Assembly (NCBI RefSeq): GCF_000761485.1
Contig: NZ_JPMX01000004.1
Coordinates: forward strand, 1 to 32,168
From: Modestobacter caceresii
GTDB taxonomy: Bacteria > Actinomycetota > Actinomycetes > Mycobacteriales > Geodermatophilaceae
Direction: 5' to 3'
Length of the DNA: 32,168 nt
Below the pieces are notes generated by a model. It was not told where the DNA came from. It saw only the letters and a program-made list of their open reading frames with translations, and ran no database searches. A program made the translations under genes and the position numbers. Positions 4,191 to 15,396 of the stretch are shown piece after piece (position 1 is the stretch's first letter; each line of letters starts with the position of its first letter).

Positions 4191-4214
4191 CCACCAGAAT
4201 GGCCATTTTGGTGG
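4191..4214. repeat. AT-rich 24-base palindrome, copy 1 (one mismatch)
   Basis: Arms of 10 bases (CCACCAGAAT and ATTTTGGTGG) around a GGCC centre. One position breaks the symmetry. It lies in the cobO-cobB gap of the operon and touches the upstream candidate start of cobB. The A/T runs stand out against the surrounding GC-rich DNA. Confidence 0.9.
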
Positions 4215-4220
4215 CCGAGC

Positions 4221-4246
4221 AGGAACGCGCCGGTTCCTCAGGAACC
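4221..4246. repeat. Mutually exclusive small hairpins between the two palindromes
   Basis: AGGAAC (4221-4226), GGTTCCT (4232-4238) and AGGAACC (4240-4246) follow one another. The middle block can pair with either neighbour. This is seen directly; any regulatory effect is inference. Confidence 0.6.
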
Positions 4247-4268
4247 ACCAAAATGGCCATTTTGGTGG
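4245..4268. repeat. AT-rich 24-base palindrome, copy 2 (perfect)
   Basis: Perfect inverted repeat with 10-base arms CCACCAAAAT and ATTTTGGTGG around GGCC, 30 bases from copy 1 and only 9 bases downstream of the cobO stop. There is no T-tract, so it does not look like a classical terminator. Confidence 0.95.
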
Positions 4269-4277
4269 CCGGGTGGG

Positions 4278-4892
4278 TCACCACTCGATCCCCCGTTGGC
4301 CCTTCTGGCCGGCGTCCATCGGGTGTTTGACCTTGGTCATCTCCACGACCAGGTCAGCGGCCTCGATCAGCGCCGGCGGGGCGTTGCGCCCGGTGATGAC
4401 GACGTGCTGGCTGCCCGGCCGGTTCGTCAGCGTCTCGACGACGTCCTCGATGTCGACCCAGCCCCACTTCAGCGGGTAGGTGAACTCGTCGAGCACGTAG
4501 AACCGGTGCGCCTCGGCGGCCAGGTCGCGCTTGATCTGCGCCCAGCCCTCGGCGGCGTCACCGGCGTGGTCGGTCTCGTCGCCGTGCTTGCGCGACCACG
4601 ACCAGCCCGAGCCCATCTTGTGCCAGACCACCGGGCCGCCCTCGCCGGTGGTCTCGTGCACCCGGCCCAGTGCGGTCAGCGCGTTCTCCTCGCCGACCTT
4701 CCACTTGGCGCTCTTGACGAACTGGTAGACCGCGATCGACCAGCCCTGGTTCCACGCCCGCATCGCCATCCCGAAGGCAGCGGTGGACTTGCCCTTCATC
4801 TCGCCCGTGTGCACCGCGAGCAGCGGTCGGTTGCGGCGCTGCCGAGTGGTCAGCCCGTCGACCGGGACCGCGGTCACCTGTCCCTGGGGCAC
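4278..4892 (-). CDS. cobO: Corrinoid (cob(I)alamin) adenosyltransferase, CobO/BtuR family
   Basis: 204 residues, the usual CobO length. It transfers the adenosyl group of ATP to reduced corrinoid. Seen: the P-loop in LLAVHTGEMKGKSTAAFGMA (about residues 24-43), AVYQFVKSAKW, the WSWSRKHGDET region, FYVLDEFTYPLKWGW and the C-terminal MTKVKHPMDAGQKGQRGIEW, which is near-diagnostic for this family. The start is a GTG with a GGAGG site 5 bases upstream. It follows the chelatase gene by 73 bases and precedes cobB by about 100 bases that contain the palindromic repeats. Confidence 0.97.
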   Translation of the reverse strand: MPQGQVTAVPVDGLTTRQRRNRPLLAVHTGEMKGKSTAAFGMAMRAWNQGWSIAVYQFVKSAKWKVGEENALTALGRVHETTGEGGPVVWHKMGSGWSWSRKHGDETDHAGDAAEGWAQIKRDLAAEAHRFYVLDEFTYPLKWGWVDIEDVVETLTNRPGSQHVVITGRNAPPALIEAADLVVEMTKVKHPMDAGQKGQRGIEW

Positions 4893-4946
4893 TGGTCCTC
4901 CTCGCTGGCGCTCGTCGGCCGACTGCCTGGCACTGTGCTCATCGGT

Positions 4947-4960
4947 GAGCTCGCGAGCTC
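4947..4960. repeat. GAGCTCGCGAGCTC palindrome between the chelatase gene and cobO
   Basis: A perfect 14-base palindrome just after the chelatase stop, extended by imperfect GTGAG/CTCAC flanks. It could fold into an RNA hairpin between two operon genes. No T-run follows it. Confidence 0.6.
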
Positions 4961-4965
4961 GCTCA

Positions 4966-7050
4966 CTAGGCCGCCTCTCGCACCGTGCGGACCAGCGACT
5001 CCGCGCCGAGTTCCTCGAGCCGCATCGTCTGCGCGCCCAGCGCCGTGCCCAGCGACGCGGCCAGGCCCAGCCGCACCGGCCCGGACTCGCAGTCGACGAC
5101 GACGCTCGCCGTCCCGGCCGCGGCGAGCAGGCCGGCGGCCCGGCGGGCGTCGGAGAGGTGGTCGCCGCCGCGCGGCCCGGTCGCCCGGCCGTCGGTCACG
5201 ACGACGAGCAGCGGGCGGCGCTGCGGGTCGCGGACCCGCTCCAGCCGCAGCGTCTCGTGCGCCCGGAGCAGCCCGGCGGCGAGCGGGGTGCGCCCGCCGG
5301 TGGGCAGGCTGGTCAGCCGGGCGGCGGCGGCCTCCACCGACCAGGTGGGCGGCAGGGTCAGCTCGGCGTCCGCGCCGCGGAAGGTGATCAGCCCGACCTT
5401 GTCCCGGCGCTGGTAGGCGTCCATCAGCAGCGAGAGGACGGCGCCCTTCACCGCGGCCATCCGGGAGCGGGCGCCCATCGAGCCGCTGGCGTCGACCACG
5501 AAGAGGACGAGGTTGCCCTCGCGGCCCTCCAGCGTGGCCTGGCGCAGGTCCTCGTGCTGCAGGCGCAGCCCGGCGCCGCTGCGGCCGCGGGCCCGCTGGT
5601 GCGGTGCGGCAGCGAGCACGGTGTCGACCAGGTGCAGCTTGGTGACGCTGCCCTCGGGACGCCGGGAGCCGACCACCCGCCCGCGCTCGCTGCGCGCCTT
5701 CGACCGCCGGCCCGACGCGCCCGCACCCATGCCGGGCACCTCCAGCCGCTGCACCAGGAACGCGGCGTCCGGGGCGACGGCGGCCTTCTCCGGTGCGGGC
5801 GCGGCGTCGGTGTGCCCACCGCCCTCACCCCGCGGCGCCGTCGTCGGTGGCTGCTCGTCCGGGGCCCCGCCGTCCTGCGGAGCCGGCGCCGACTCACCCT
5901 CAGCACCACCAAAATGGCCATTCTGGTGGTCGGGGGAGGTGTCGCCCGGGGGAGGGGTGCCGCCGCCGTCGGGGGGAGAGTCCGGGCCGTCGGTGGGGTC
6001 GGTGCCCTCGGGCGGGGTGGGGTCGTCGTCCGGGTCGTCGTCGGGGCGGGAGTCGGCGAGGGCCTGGTCCAGGGTGTCGTCGTCGAGGCCGGGGGCGTCG
6101 AAGGGGTTGCGCCGGCGGCGGTGCGGGAGGGCGAGCCGGGCGGCGACCCGGACGTCGTCCTCGGTGACGTCGGTGCGGCCGCACCAGGCGGCGTGCGCGA
6201 TCGCGGCGCGGGCTGTGACCAGGTCGGCGCGCAGGCCGTCGACGTCGAAGGCGGCGCAGACGCTGGTGACCTGGCGGAGGGCGGCGTCGCTCAGCACCAC
6301 GCTGGGCAGCAGCGCGCGGGCCGCGGCGATCTGGTCCGCCAGCTCACGCTCGGAGACGGCCCAGGCGGCGGCGAAGGCTGCCGGGTCGGCGTCGTAGCCG
6401 AACCGGCGGCGGACCACCTCGGCGCGCAGGTCGGCGTCCCGGGGGGCGGCGACCTCGACGGTGAGCCCGAACCGGTCCAGCAGCTGGGGGCGGAGCTCGC
6501 CCTCCTCCGGGTTCATGGTGCCGACCAGCAGGAAGCGGGCGGCGTGCCGCACCGAGACGCCCTCGCGCTCGACGTAGGCCCGGCCCAGGGCGGCGGCGTC
6601 CAGCAGCAGGTCGACCAGGTGGTCGTGCAGCAGGTTGACCTCGTCGACGTACAGGACGCCGCGGTGCGCACCGGCCAGCAGCCCGGGCTCGAAGGACTTC
6701 ACGCCCTCGGTGAGCGCCCGCTCCAGGTCCAGCGAGCCGACCAGCCGGTCCTCCGAGGCGCCGACCGGCAGCTCGACGAGGCGGGCCGGGCGGGTGACGG
6801 GGCGGTCGTCGGCGGAGTGCGGGCCGTCCGGGCACTCCGGGTCGGGGGCGGCGGGGTCGCAGGCGAAGCGGCAGCCGGCGACGACGTCGACCGGGGGCAG
6901 GACGGCGGCCAGGGCGCGGACCGTCGTCGACTTCGCGGTGCCCTTCTCGCCGCGCACCAGCACTCCACCCACGGCGGGGGAGACGGCGTTGAGCAGCAGC
7001 GCCAGTCGCATGTCGTCCATGCCGACGACGGCGCCGAAGGGATAGGTCAT
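4966..7050 (-). CDS. Fused AAA+ / VWA chelatase subunit (ChlI-ChlD type), probably for cobalt insertion
   Basis: 694 residues. The N-terminal AAA+ ATPase domain (about 1-340) has Walker A in VRGEKGTAKSTTVRAL (about 35-45), VLYVDEVNLLHDHLVDLLL and the sensor segment LLVGTMNPEEGELRPQLLDRFGL. A Pro/Asp/Gly-rich linker (about 345-450) follows. A C-terminal von Willebrand A domain carries the MIDAS motif VVDASGSMG (Asp near residue 520). Such fusions combine the I and D subunits of magnesium chelatase. In a B12 operon next to cobO it is most likely the motor partner of a CobN cobaltochelatase, which is not in this window. I chose the ATG at 7048-7050; the open frame upstream of it is riboswitch sequence. 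A GGGGAGAGG stretch is 15 bases upstream, somewhat far. One palindrome copy lies in the linker coding region. Confidence 0.92.
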   Translation of the reverse strand: MTYPFGAVVGMDDMRLALLLNAVSPAVGGVLVRGEKGTAKSTTVRALAAVLPPVDVVAGCRFACDPAAPDPECPDGPHSADDRPVTRPARLVELPVGASEDRLVGSLDLERALTEGVKSFEPGLLAGAHRGVLYVDEVNLLHDHLVDLLLDAAALGRAYVEREGVSVRHAARFLLVGTMNPEEGELRPQLLDRFGLTVEVAAPRDADLRAEVVRRRFGYDADPAAFAAAWAVSERELADQIAAARALLPSVVLSDAALRQVTSVCAAFDVDGLRADLVTARAAIAHAAWCGRTDVTEDDVRVAARLALPHRRRRNPFDAPGLDDDTLDQALADSRPDDDPDDDPTPPEGTDPTDGPDSPPDGGGTPPPGDTSPDHQNGHFGGAEGESAPAPQDGGAPDEQPPTTAPRGEGGGHTDAAPAPEKAAVAPDAAFLVQRLEVPGMGAGASGRRSKARSERGRVVGSRRPEGSVTKLHLVDTVLAAAPHQRARGRSGAGLRLQHEDLRQATLEGREGNLVLFVVDASGSMGARSRMAAVKGAVLSLLMDAYQRRDKVGLITFRGADAELTLPPTWSVEAAAARLTSLPTGGRTPLAAGLLRAHETLRLERVRDPQRRPLLVVVTDGRATGPRGGDHLSDARRAAGLLAAAGTASVVVDCESGPVRLGLAASLGTALGAQTMRLEELGAESLVRTVREAA
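5906..5929. repeat. AT-rich 24-base palindrome, copy 3, inside coding sequence
   Basis: Arms CCACCAAAAT and ATTCTGGTGG around GGCC, with one mismatch and one further matching base pair outside. It lies inside the chelatase gene and is translated in frame as part of the disordered linker (about residues 374-382, DHQNGHFGG). Confidence 0.9.
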
Positions 7051-7734: not shown

Positions 7735-8231
7735 CCGGCAACGCTGCAGATCTGGACGGCGGTCAGCCGCCGGCCGACCCGGCCGCGGCCGCCGCCCAGC
7801 TGGCCGCGCTCGATGCAGACCAGACGGCGCTCGCCGATCGCATCGTCCAGCCGTGGTGGTACGACGTCGCCCTGGGGCTGCTCCTCTTCGGGTTCTTCAG
7901 CAGCTACTCGTCCCACAGCATCTGGGTGATCGCCGGAGCACTGGTGCTCTTCCTCGCCGGGACCGCCGGCCTGGTGGCGGCGTACCGGCGGATCACCGGG
8001 GTCTGGTGGGACGCCCGGACAGTCGGGCCGGTGCAGGAGCGCGTCCGGCGGGCCGTCCGCCAGTGGGCGGTCGGCTACTTCCTGTTGTTCGCCCTGGGCG
8101 GCGCAGCCGAGTTCCTGCTCGACCTGCGTGGCGCGATGGTCGTGGTGGGCTCGGTGCTCGGGGCGTCGGCGGGGCTGCTCAGCCGGTGGGTGACCCGGAT
8201 CTACGTCGCAGGGCTGCGGGCCGGGCGGTGA
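7731..8231 (+). CDS. Small membrane protein, second paralogue
   Basis: 166 residues from a GTG overlapping the previous stop (GTGA). It repeats the upstream protein's layout: helical N-terminus (AAQLAALDADQTALADRIV), the PWWYDVALGLLLFGFFSSY signature and about four membrane segments. An extra basic loop (WDARTVGPVQERVRRAVRQWA) lies between segments two and three. The strongest similarity between the paralogues is in the first 65 residues and in the RRITGVW / KRMTGVW segment. Its stop overlaps the GTG of the regulator gene. No function is recognised. Confidence 0.85.
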   Translation: MTGNAADLDGGQPPADPAAAAAQLAALDADQTALADRIVQPWWYDVALGLLLFGFFSSYSSHSIWVIAGALVLFLAGTAGLVAAYRRITGVWWDARTVGPVQERVRRAVRQWAVGYFLLFALGGAAEFLLDLRGAMVVVGSVLGASAGLLSRWVTRIYVAGLRAGR

Positions 8232-8581
8232 CCGCCGTCGAGCCGCGGTTCGACGCCGTCGTCCACGCGCCGCCCCGGCTGCAGATCTGCGGGCTGCTGG
8301 CCGCCGTCGACACGATGGAGTTCGCCGCCGTCCGGGACGCGGTGTCGGTGAGCGACTCGGTGCTCTCCAAGCACGTCAGACAGCTGGAGGAGGCGGGCTA
8401 CGTGCAGGTGCGCAAGGCGACGATCGCCTCGCGCCAGCGCACCAGCCTGGCGCTCACCAAGGCGGGGCGGGCGGCGTTCGACGCCCACGTCGCCGAGCTC
8501 CGCCGGATCGTCGAAGGTCCCCGTCCCACTCCTCCCTCGCCAGCTCGGGCAGAGCCTCTGGACGAGGCCACAGGAGGCTGA
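8228..8581 (+). CDS. Winged helix-turn-helix transcriptional regulator (MarR-like, HTH_34 type)
   Basis: 117 residues from a GTG overlapping the previous stop. The centre reads LQICGLLAAVDTMEFAAVRDAVSVSDSVLSKHVRQLEEAGYVQVRKATIASRQRTSLALTKAGRAAF in consecutive parts, the standard winged-helix layout: helix-turn-helix around SVSDSVLSKHVRQLEEAGYV, a wing with Lys/Arg around RKATIASRQRTSLALT, then a C-terminal helix. No ligand domain is present. It is the third gene of a 4-base-overlap operon with two membrane paralogues, so it probably controls that operon, perhaps through the GGAAAG repeats over the promoter at 7251-7297. Confidence 0.88.
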   Translation: MTAVEPRFDAVVHAPPRLQICGLLAAVDTMEFAAVRDAVSVSDSVLSKHVRQLEEAGYVQVRKATIASRQRTSLALTKAGRAAFDAHVAELRRIVEGPRPTPPSPARAEPLDEATGG

Positions 8582-15313: not shown

Positions 15314-15370
15314 GATCATCGGCGAACGGTCGCCGACACGCCGGTGGGGCGCGACCGGATGCCGATGATC
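15314..15370. repeat. 10-base inverted repeat upstream of cobQ
   Basis: GATCATCGGC (15314-15323) and GCCGATGATC (15361-15370) are perfect complements 37 bases apart, with a smaller GGCGA/TCGCC hairpin at 15321-15334. It fills most of the plsC-cobQ gap and could be a hairpin or a two-site operator. Confidence 0.55.
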
Positions 15371-15396
15371 ATCACGGTGGGTGGTGCGGCGGGGGG

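What the first reader, a model, noticed from the sequence alone, without database searches (positions are those of the whole stretch)
4191..5929. A dispersed AT-rich 24-base palindrome, with one copy inside a coding sequence
Three copies (4191-4214, 4245-4268, 5906-5929) share 10-base arms CCACCAAAAT around GGCC; one is perfect and two have one mismatch. Such A/T runs are striking in this GC-rich DNA. Two copies sit as a close pair in the cobO-cobB gap; the third is in frame within the disordered linker of the chelatase gene. Near-identity across intergenic and coding sites suggests either a mobile or amplifying palindromic element, or a conserved protein-binding site selected at DNA level. 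In RNA each would fold into a 10-base-pair stem with a GGCC tetraloop.
Basis: partly seen in the sequence, partly recalled or inferred. Interest (0 to 1): 0.72.

Follow-up and report, generated by a model that had tools for sequence, protein, structure and literature searches.

The report
Nuclease-paired palindromes swapping at gene ends
The three short mirror-image DNA repeats belong to a large, fast-changing set scattered at gene ends in these soil bacteria, and each version of the repeat tends to flank, and to change together with, its own copy of an unstudied DNA-cutting enzyme, which suggests a previously unrecognised kind of mobile DNA.

Summary
Observation confirmed: three 24-bp palindromes, none expected by chance. 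They belong to a 48-copy family in this Modestobacter genome, concentrated just behind stop codons and between convergent genes. Three other tested palindrome patterns are dispersed in relatives, and orthologous sites exchange types: of 72 intervals 24 keep this type, 27 hold another, 21 neither.
The REP transposase domain is absent (0 of 23 genomes). Instead the repeats flank a gene for an AbiEi-like domain fused to a DUF559 (Vsr-like) nuclease. 53 of 66 tested genus loci share a repeat on both sides, against 15 of 368 control genes, three of those being the same family. Outside the genus 19 of 27 do, against 2 of 300 mismatched pairs. Repeat version tracks the nuclease, not the species (partial r 0.58, p 1e-4). 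At one locus, in four genomes, flanks are 91-96% identical but the nuclease 72-80%, with another repeat version.
Best reading: a REP/RAYT-like pair built on an unrelated nuclease. Association is shown; that the nuclease spreads the repeats, and a terminator-like use, are inferred.

The parts
4191..4214 (.). 24-bp palindrome, type A (CCACCAGAATGGCCATTTTGGTGG), first of a pair, between the genes called cobO and cobB
   Evidence: intergenic
4245..4268 (.). 24-bp perfect palindrome, type A, second of the pair (54 bp start to start)
   Evidence: spacing class
4191..4268 (.). gene-end slot holding the palindrome pair; the orthologous gap matches repeats that flank DUF559 nuclease genes in 17 of 19 genomes, and is short and empty in the other 2
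5906..5929 (.). 24-bp palindrome, type A, one changed base, inside a minus-strand reading frame; read as (P)DHQNGHFGG
   Evidence: the linker matches a nuclease-flanking repeat better than controls in 12 of 18 genomes
   Evidence: gene prediction by my script
   Evidence: gene prediction by my script
   Evidence: gene prediction by my script; linker alignment

Best explanation
The palindromes are one version ('type A') of a class of dispersed palindromic repeats that live together with a dedicated nuclease gene. The protein (about 287 aa) joins an N-terminal AbiEi-like domain, a kind of domain known to bind DNA (recalled), to a C-terminal DUF559 domain of the PD-(D/E)XK/Vsr-like nuclease type (fold recalled). 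Most such nuclease genes are flanked on both sides by copies of one repeat, and in the close branch that repeat is also scattered over the genome. Proposed mechanism: the nuclease recognises its own palindrome and, acting in trans, drives its copying into, or replacement at, accepted places, mostly just behind stop codons, sometimes in frame in linkers or protein tails. When the nuclease allele is replaced, a new palindrome version spreads through the same slots, so that orthologous slots hold different versions in sister species. At gene ends the repeats would fold as hairpins and probably help end or protect transcripts. Shown here: dispersal, gene-end placement, slot exchange, linkage and co-variation with the nuclease. 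Inferred: that the nuclease binds and moves the palindromes, and the hairpin function.
For: Dispersed family: 48 copies, control 0. Placement of the 48: 15 in convergent gaps (4.4 expected), 4 in divergent gaps (15.3), 21 in tandem gaps (20.4), 8 in reading frames or at a contig edge; 18 of 21 tandem copies within 25 nt of the stop, reached by none of 20,000 random placements. Slot exchange. Nuclease link: the same protein family lies between paired palindromes in different gene neighbourhoods. 53 of 66 genus loci share a repeat on both sides against 15 of 368 control genes, three of which are nuclease homologues. 19 of 27 loci outside the genus against 2 of 300 mismatched flank pairs. In the 16 genomes with a close nuclease, the version at its flanks has at least 8 copies by the nearest tested pattern (with 69, 75); three nearly complete genomes whose best match is under 60% identical (G003, G009, G022) have at most 7 copies of any tested pattern. 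Co-variation: Mantel r 0.55, p 1e-4, n 16; partial r given species 0.58, p 1e-4, n 14. Replacement as a unit at one locus: G000 against G016, flanks 95.5% and 93.2% identical, nuclease 72%, version A against D. D222, E233 and G236 kept in 63 of 63 aligned paralogues. Closest solved chain by sequence: 'Mobile intron protein', 3r3p, E 2.6e-4. The cobO-cobB gap matches nuclease-flanking repeats in 17 of 19 genomes at E 3.4e-7 or better, best control 0.002.
Against: No insertion or excision was observed and no target-site duplication found. G021 carries 84 copies of version C but its close nuclease is flanked by version A', and none of its four other fetched paralogues shares C on both sides. 13 of 66 genus loci and 8 of 27 outside lack a detectable shared repeat. 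Old versions persist in number beside new ones (G005: 25 A against 24 D; G018: 22 A with an A nuclease against 28 B). Repeats of the more distant paralogues are few in the stretches held (0-3 copies, flanking ones included). Two linker palindrome types (GGATCC-centred and GGTTCC-like) match no nuclease flank better than controls. Position-specific conservation could mean binding without mobilisation.
Confidence: 0.6

Rival explanations
1. The palindromes are transcription terminators (hairpins without a U-run) kept by selection at gene ends. The nuclease gene merely sits between two such ends, and similar hairpins arise or are exchanged by recombination.
For: Gene-end placement. Outer stems beyond the 24-mer differ between sites but pair: mean run of complementary pairs 2.40 against 0.74 for re-paired flanks, maximum 1.40 in 5,000. 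70 nt after the stop fold better than shuffles: with type A z -2.43 (n 44), without -1.11 (n 120), 5' regions -0.18 (n 95).
Against: Does not explain shared repeats at 53 of 66 nuclease loci, co-variation with the nuclease, the same 24-mer at many sites, or copies inside reading frames, six of seven of which have an outer run of 0-2 pairs.
Confidence: 0.2
2. The palindromes are operator sites of the AbiEi-like domain: the protein is a regulator with a genome-wide regulon, not a mobiliser.
For: Symmetric site with invariant blocks about one helical turn apart (my reading) and only three loose arm positions. AbiEi matches E 1.3e-11 at best. Version tracks the protein.
Against: Sites avoid divergent gaps, where promoters lie (4 against 15.3 expected); they flank the gene on both sides; the nuclease core is kept in 63 of 63 aligned paralogues.
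Confidence: 0.12
3. REP/REPIN elements mobilised by a RAYT (HUH, Y1) transposase.
For: Size, gene-end placement, several types per genome, doublets and intragenic copies resemble REPs (PMC3733652: abstract, passages and first part of the Discussion read).
Against: Y1_Tnp found in 0 of 23 genomes while the same search rang in 5 of 14 control genomes; within 6 nt of 48 copies GTAG 0, CGTC 3.
Confidence: 0.03
4. Uptake-sequence-like dialects, as in Neisseriaceae, kept by natural transformation.
For: Lineage-specific versions and gene-end hairpins recall DUS dialects (PMC3630211, passages read).
Against: Half-sites never occur outside the palindromes in 714 kb (0 of 43-44 hits for each of four half-site words); tens of copies, not thousands.
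Confidence: 0.02

Closest known systems
REP / REPIN elements with RAYT transposases
   Same: 20-40 bp palindromes, many copies, behind genes, several types per genome, doublets, intragenic copies, nuclease gene flanked by its own repeats, switches of type (PMC3733652: abstract, passages, first part of Discussion; PMC3116915 and PMC3686654: passages)
   Different: No Y1/HUH domain in 23 genomes; no GTAG tag; perfect symmetry without loop; the linked enzyme is DUF559/Vsr-like; fixed slots exchange types between species
Vsr-like homing endonuclease (PDB 3r3p, 'Mobile intron protein'; Vsr-like is recalled)
   Same: Sequence similarity of the nuclease domain, E 2.6e-4; PADLOC HEase E 3.3e-5 for one of three proteins
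   Different: No intron or intein seen; AbiEi-like N-terminal domain; the linked DNA is a dispersed palindrome
AbiE (AbiEi antitoxin)
   Same: N-terminal region matches AbiEi models
   Different: Fused to a nuclease domain; an AbiEii partner was not looked for
Double-hairpin elements of organelle DNA
   Same: Paired hairpins in mobile-looking repeats (search listing and abstract openings only)
   Different: Bacterial chromosome, nuclease-linked, single copies common
Rickettsia palindromic elements
   Same: In-frame copies in coding regions (recalled)
   Different: 24 bp against about 100 bp or more (recalled); mostly intergenic here

Membership tests
REP (GTAG/CGTC super-families) | unpaired GTAG or CGTC tag at one end | tested here: not met
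   within 6 nt of 48 copies: GTAG 0, CGTC 3
REP (broad sense) | 20-40 bp palindrome, repeated, mostly behind coding regions | tested here: met
REPIN/RAYT | cognate Y1 (RAYT) transposase in the genome | tested here: not met
   PF01797 in 0 of 23 genomes; the same search rings in 5 of 14 control genomes
REPIN/RAYT | doublets at fixed spacing as the main unit | tested here: inconclusive
   52-55 bp doublets recur in several types, but among the 48 copies of this genome only one pair has that spacing
REPIN/RAYT (architecture) | nuclease gene flanked by its own repeats | tested here: met
   with an unrelated nuclease: 53 of 66 loci
DNA uptake sequences | motif common also outside inverted pairs, very many copies | tested here: not met
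   0 half-sites outside palindromes in 714 kb
Vsr-like / DUF559 nucleases | DUF559 profile and conserved acidic core | tested here: met
   PF04480 above the cut-off in 4 of 4 proteins; D222 and E233 in 63 of 63
Vsr-like / DUF559 nucleases | fold and cleavage activity | tested here: inconclusive
   single-sequence model, mean pLDDT 35, unusable; activity needs the bench
intrinsic terminator | hairpin followed by a U-run | tested here: not met
   flanks G-rich without a T-run, by inspection of the 48 rows
insertion sequence / MITE | target-site duplication and clean empty site | tested here: inconclusive
   sites without the palindrome occur but gene-end gaps differ too much to define the borders

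The most novel reading that the evidence does not exclude
An unrecognised, class-wide mobile system in actinobacteria: AbiEi-DUF559 nucleases each propagate their own palindrome, colonise fixed gene-end slots and rewrite them when the nuclease allele changes. Many of the lineage-specific gene-end hairpins in these GC-rich genomes would then be the footprints of this nuclease family.
Probability: 0.55. Interest if true: 0.93.

Novelty: categorically new. Interest (0 to 1): 0.82.

Why it matters
Short palindromic repeats are common in bacteria, but the only dedicated enzyme partner known to me is the HUH-type RAYT. A non-homologous pairing with a Vsr-like nuclease, whose relatives are found in 70 of 118 sampled genomes of the class (own genome included), would give an uncharacterised protein family (DUF559) a candidate role. 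It would also explain why gene-end hairpins in these genomes change sequence between sister species while their positions persist. The matched pairs of nuclease and palindrome version are ready-made material for measuring how a nuclease changes specificity.

Tried and rejected
RAYT/REP: rejected by the Y1_Tnp search and missing tags. DNA-uptake sequence: rejected, no half-sites outside palindromes. Phage origin: 0 matches of the degenerate 24-mer in viral contigs; five stretches there matched one of six peptide patterns of the nuclease, none encoded a relative. Simple compensatory RNA stem inside the 24-mer: weak, alike changes in both arms 7 against 3.9 expected; sense-strand mismatches G.U 13, A.C 7, other 6, not decisive. 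Inheritance of the slot occupant: on the local gene tree the occupant changes 12 times in the gap (18 genomes; shuffled mean 12.6) and 10 times in the linker (16 genomes; 10.8), so no phylogenetic signal; states were assigned by eye. Structure prediction from one sequence failed, pLDDT 35, so no fold search was made. A census of inverted repeats in samples of four relatives (400, 400, 200 and 200 kb) was too thin to find the families. A ~917-bp palindrome pair in G004, first noted as a lead, flanks a gene that looks like pyrK (recalled), not the nuclease. NCBIfam gave nothing above a cut-off. PHROGs gave only weak matches, best E 3.5e-4.

How the counts were made. Slots: 25 of the 48 copies were used. 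G016 and G018 intervals (22 and 20, no interval for 3 and 5) were sorted by script: A 19, other 15, none 8, two of the eight being loss of one of a close pair at L089. G021 and G015 intervals (17 and 13) were sorted by eye: G021 A-like 5, other 9, none 3; G015 0, 3, 10. Nuclease loci: 70 of the 114 matches were fetched; L338 gave no hit, and L315, L322 and L346 had under 100 nt on one side, leaving 66. The 368 control genes come from stretches of four relatives, G005, G009, G003 and G007. Type labels A-K, and the 12-base arms, were set by me. One search covered 22 genomes; G012 was not among them. G011 and G013 (70-72% complete) had no match; G002 has a partial match and a fragment, with 36 copies of C.
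Full report
1. The window contains three copies of CCACCAAAATGGCCATTTTGGTGG at the stated places with 1, 0 and 1 mismatches; 100 shuffles give none. The own genome (G000, 4.95 Mb, 139 contigs) holds 48 copies with up to 3 mismatches, 12 perfect; the reversed control pattern gives 0. Within the genus 9 of 23 genomes carry this version with up to 2 mismatches; a looser core pattern is found in 29 of 112 genomes of the family, 5 of 12 genera, control 0 in the rows listed.

2. Where the copies lie. All 48 copies were read with predictions from my own simple gene finder: 40 in gaps between genes, 7 in predicted reading frames, 1 at a contig edge. By gap class: convergent 15 (4.4 expected from available positions), tandem 21 (20.4), divergent 4 (15.3). 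In tandem gaps 18 of 21 lie within 25 nt of the upstream stop; none of 20,000 random placements within the same gaps did as well. The 24-mer has no stop in any frame (by inspection). Six of the seven coding copies are read in the same phase, giving a hydrophilic peptide like DHQNGHFGG.

3. What is conserved. Over 96 arms, 54 of 57 changes fall at arm positions 6, 7 and 8; each of the other nine positions is unchanged in 95 or 96 of 96. Alike changes in both arms are 7 against 3.9 expected, so there is little compensation inside the 24-mer. Outside it, the flanks pair although their sequences differ: mean run of complementary pairs 2.40 against 0.74 for re-paired flanks (maximum 1.40 in 5,000); six of the seven coding copies have runs of 0-2, one has 5. 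Gene ends in this genome are structured in general, and more so with type A: mean z -2.43 (n 44), without type A -1.11 (n 120), upstream regions -0.18 (n 95).

4. The same places hold other palindromes in other species. In the cobO-cobB gap of 19 genomes I read eight palindrome or hairpin types beside two short, empty gaps; the chelatase linker of 18 genomes shows the same pattern with partly different types. Main types, first halves: A CCACCAAAATGG, B GGGGCCAAARTCG, C GGCCATGTTGG, D GGCAGAAATGG, E GGCGAAAGTGG. Three patterns for these were counted genus-wide and are dispersed: B in 12 of 23 genomes, C in 13 of 23, the D/E pattern in 15 of 23, with up to 37, 84 and 34 copies. The other types were not counted genome-wide. 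Flanks of 25 type-A sites were searched in four relatives. G016 and G018: 42 orthologous intervals, 19 with A, 15 with another type, 8 with none. G021 and G015 (sorted by eye): 30 intervals, 5 with an A-like type, 12 with another, 13 with none. Together 72: 24, 27, 21. As a rough yardstick, the tested types occupy about 50-90 places per genome (sums over) and I extrapolate about 2,000 tandem and convergent gaps from 294 in 714 kb, so 2-5% would be expected by chance, against 27 of the 48 intervals without A. At the six coding sites 11 of 12 length differences and 10 of 11 are multiples of three; the two exceptions are at the C-terminal site L107. On the local gene tree the occupant changes about as often as shuffled labels do: the slot lasts, the occupant does not.

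5. The enzyme. No genome of the genus has the Y1 transposase domain of REP-mobilising RAYTs (0 of 23; the same search rang in 5 of 14 control genomes). Pairs of palindromes 917-951 bp apart recur in several genomes. In G000, G007, G033 and the VKM Ac-2984 record the gene between them is one protein family, in different neighbourhoods (G000 and VKM Ac-2984 share theirs); in G004 such a pair flanks another gene. Pfam gives DUF559 above its cut-off in 4 of 4 proteins; PADLOC gives AbiEi for the N-terminal half (E 1.3e-11 at best) and weaker homing-endonuclease and methyl-directed restriction-enzyme matches for the C-terminal part. The nearest solved chain is 3r3p, 'Mobile intron protein', E 2.6e-4 over profile positions 224-280. 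Among 63 aligned paralogues D222, E233, G236, R251 and W260 are invariant. That DUF559 has the PD-(D/E)XK/Vsr fold is recalled; the structure attempt failed.

6. The link between enzyme and repeat. 20 of 22 searched genomes of the genus have the protein, 3-8 matches each, 114 in all. I fetched 70 of the 114. Of 66 loci with a hit and at least 100 nt on both sides, 53 share a repeat upstream and downstream at E below 1e-4; of 368 control genes of similar length 15 do, and three of those are nuclease homologues (identified by their positions). Close nucleases carry the palindromes named above: A in G000 and G018, A' (CCGCC) in G021, G004 and G014 (G004 with A on one side, G014 found on one side only), B in G017, G019 and G010, C in G001 and G008, a C-like type in G006, D in G005, G016 and G020, E in G015, GGCGRAAATGG in G007. 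Other paralogue branches carry other repeats, and branches of the nuclease tree share repeats (labels by eye). Outside the genus, 70 of 118 genomes of the class, own genome included, have a homologue; of 29 further loci 27 had both flanks and 19 share a repeat, against 2 of 300 mismatched flank pairs.

7. Co-variation. Across 16 close nucleases, protein distance correlates with palindrome-arm distance (r 0.55, p 1e-4). For the 14 with a species yardstick the partial correlation given species distance is 0.58 (p 1e-4), while arm and species distance correlate at 0.095. At the glpK-pgm locus (gene names recalled from the sequences) the flanks of G000 are 95.5/93.2% identical to G016, 94.8/96.0% to G019, 93.4/93.4% to G017 and 93.3/91.4% to G005, but the nucleases are 72, 80, 78 and 73% identical and carry versions D, B, B and D instead of A; G018, with version A, has a 96% identical nuclease. 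Nuclease and repeat therefore change as a unit.

8. Back to the window. The cobO-cobB gap matches nuclease-flanking repeats in 17 of 19 genomes (E 3.4e-7 or better; best control 0.002); the two exceptions are the empty gaps. The chelatase linker matches in 12 of 18 (E 3.3e-6 or better; best control 1.4e-4). No such nuclease was found in the window; G000's own type-A nuclease lies on another contig, C6:12397-13230.

9. Mechanism. Supported: the repeat is dispersed; it favours gene ends; its slots persist while its type is exchanged; versions follow nuclease branches. Inferred: the AbiEi-like domain binds the palindrome, the nuclease domain cuts at or near it, and repair or copying spreads or replaces it. 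A homing-type relation of the nuclease domain makes cut-and-repair plausible but does not show it. The invariant blocks of the palindrome, roughly one helical turn apart, fit recognition of duplex DNA by a dimer; the paired outer stems fit a hairpin function at transcript ends. Both may be true.

10. Known or new. It works like REP/RAYT: in PMC3733652 (abstract, passages and first part of the Discussion read) REPs lie behind genes, come in several types per genome and occur inside genes; PMC3686654 (passages) describes 'orthoswitches' of REP type at orthologous RAYT genes. It is not a member: no RAYT, no tag. Searches of the held library for DUF559 with palindromes, for DUF559/Vsr with mobile repeats (15 of 376 listed), for Modestobacter with palindromes and for Geodermatophilaceae with repetitive listed nothing on this by title or abstract opening; most subscription papers are not in that library.

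11. What speaks against. G021 has 84 C copies but an A'-flanked nuclease. 13 of 66 genus loci and 8 of 27 outside show no shared repeat. In G018 version B outnumbers that of its close nuclease (28 against 22). No movement was seen. Type labels were set by me, and gene predictions come from my own script.

Noticed in passing
window 4891-4980: Another dispersed repeat of about 80 bp (...GTCCTCCTCGCTGGCGCTCGTCGG...GTGAGCTCGCGAGCTCGCTCACTA...) in the gap between the cobO and chelatase genes; many copies across the genus, present at this site in 10 of 18 genomes and absent in 8. No match to nuclease flanks at E 1e-3.
   Followed up: partly
intervals of G018, G016, G015 and G021: A GC-rich long hairpin repeat (like GGCCCCGCTGCAGGGGCCCG...TGCGAG...GGGGTCCTTC) occupies some of the same gene-end slots; partner unknown.
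   Followed up: no
window 4191-4268 and L195, L198, L199, L200, L204, L209, L211, L212: Palindrome pairs with centre spacing 53-55 bp in these loci (52 in L196), in types A, B, C, D and E with unrelated spacers, several of which seem to hold a small hairpin of their own.
   Followed up: partly
window 7771-7808 and 15314-15371: Weak matches (E 3.3e-4) to repeats flanking other DUF559 paralogues.
   Followed up: no
window 8504-8569: A 66-bp stretch matches the region upstream of an ordinary predicted gene in G003 (L157), E 7e-11; not explained.
   Followed up: no
G021 genome: 84 copies of type C but no C-flanked nuclease among its five matches.
   Followed up: partly
L199:3656-4630: A type-B palindrome lies at the start of a predicted reading frame and is read as GQSRDFGP.
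   Followed up: no
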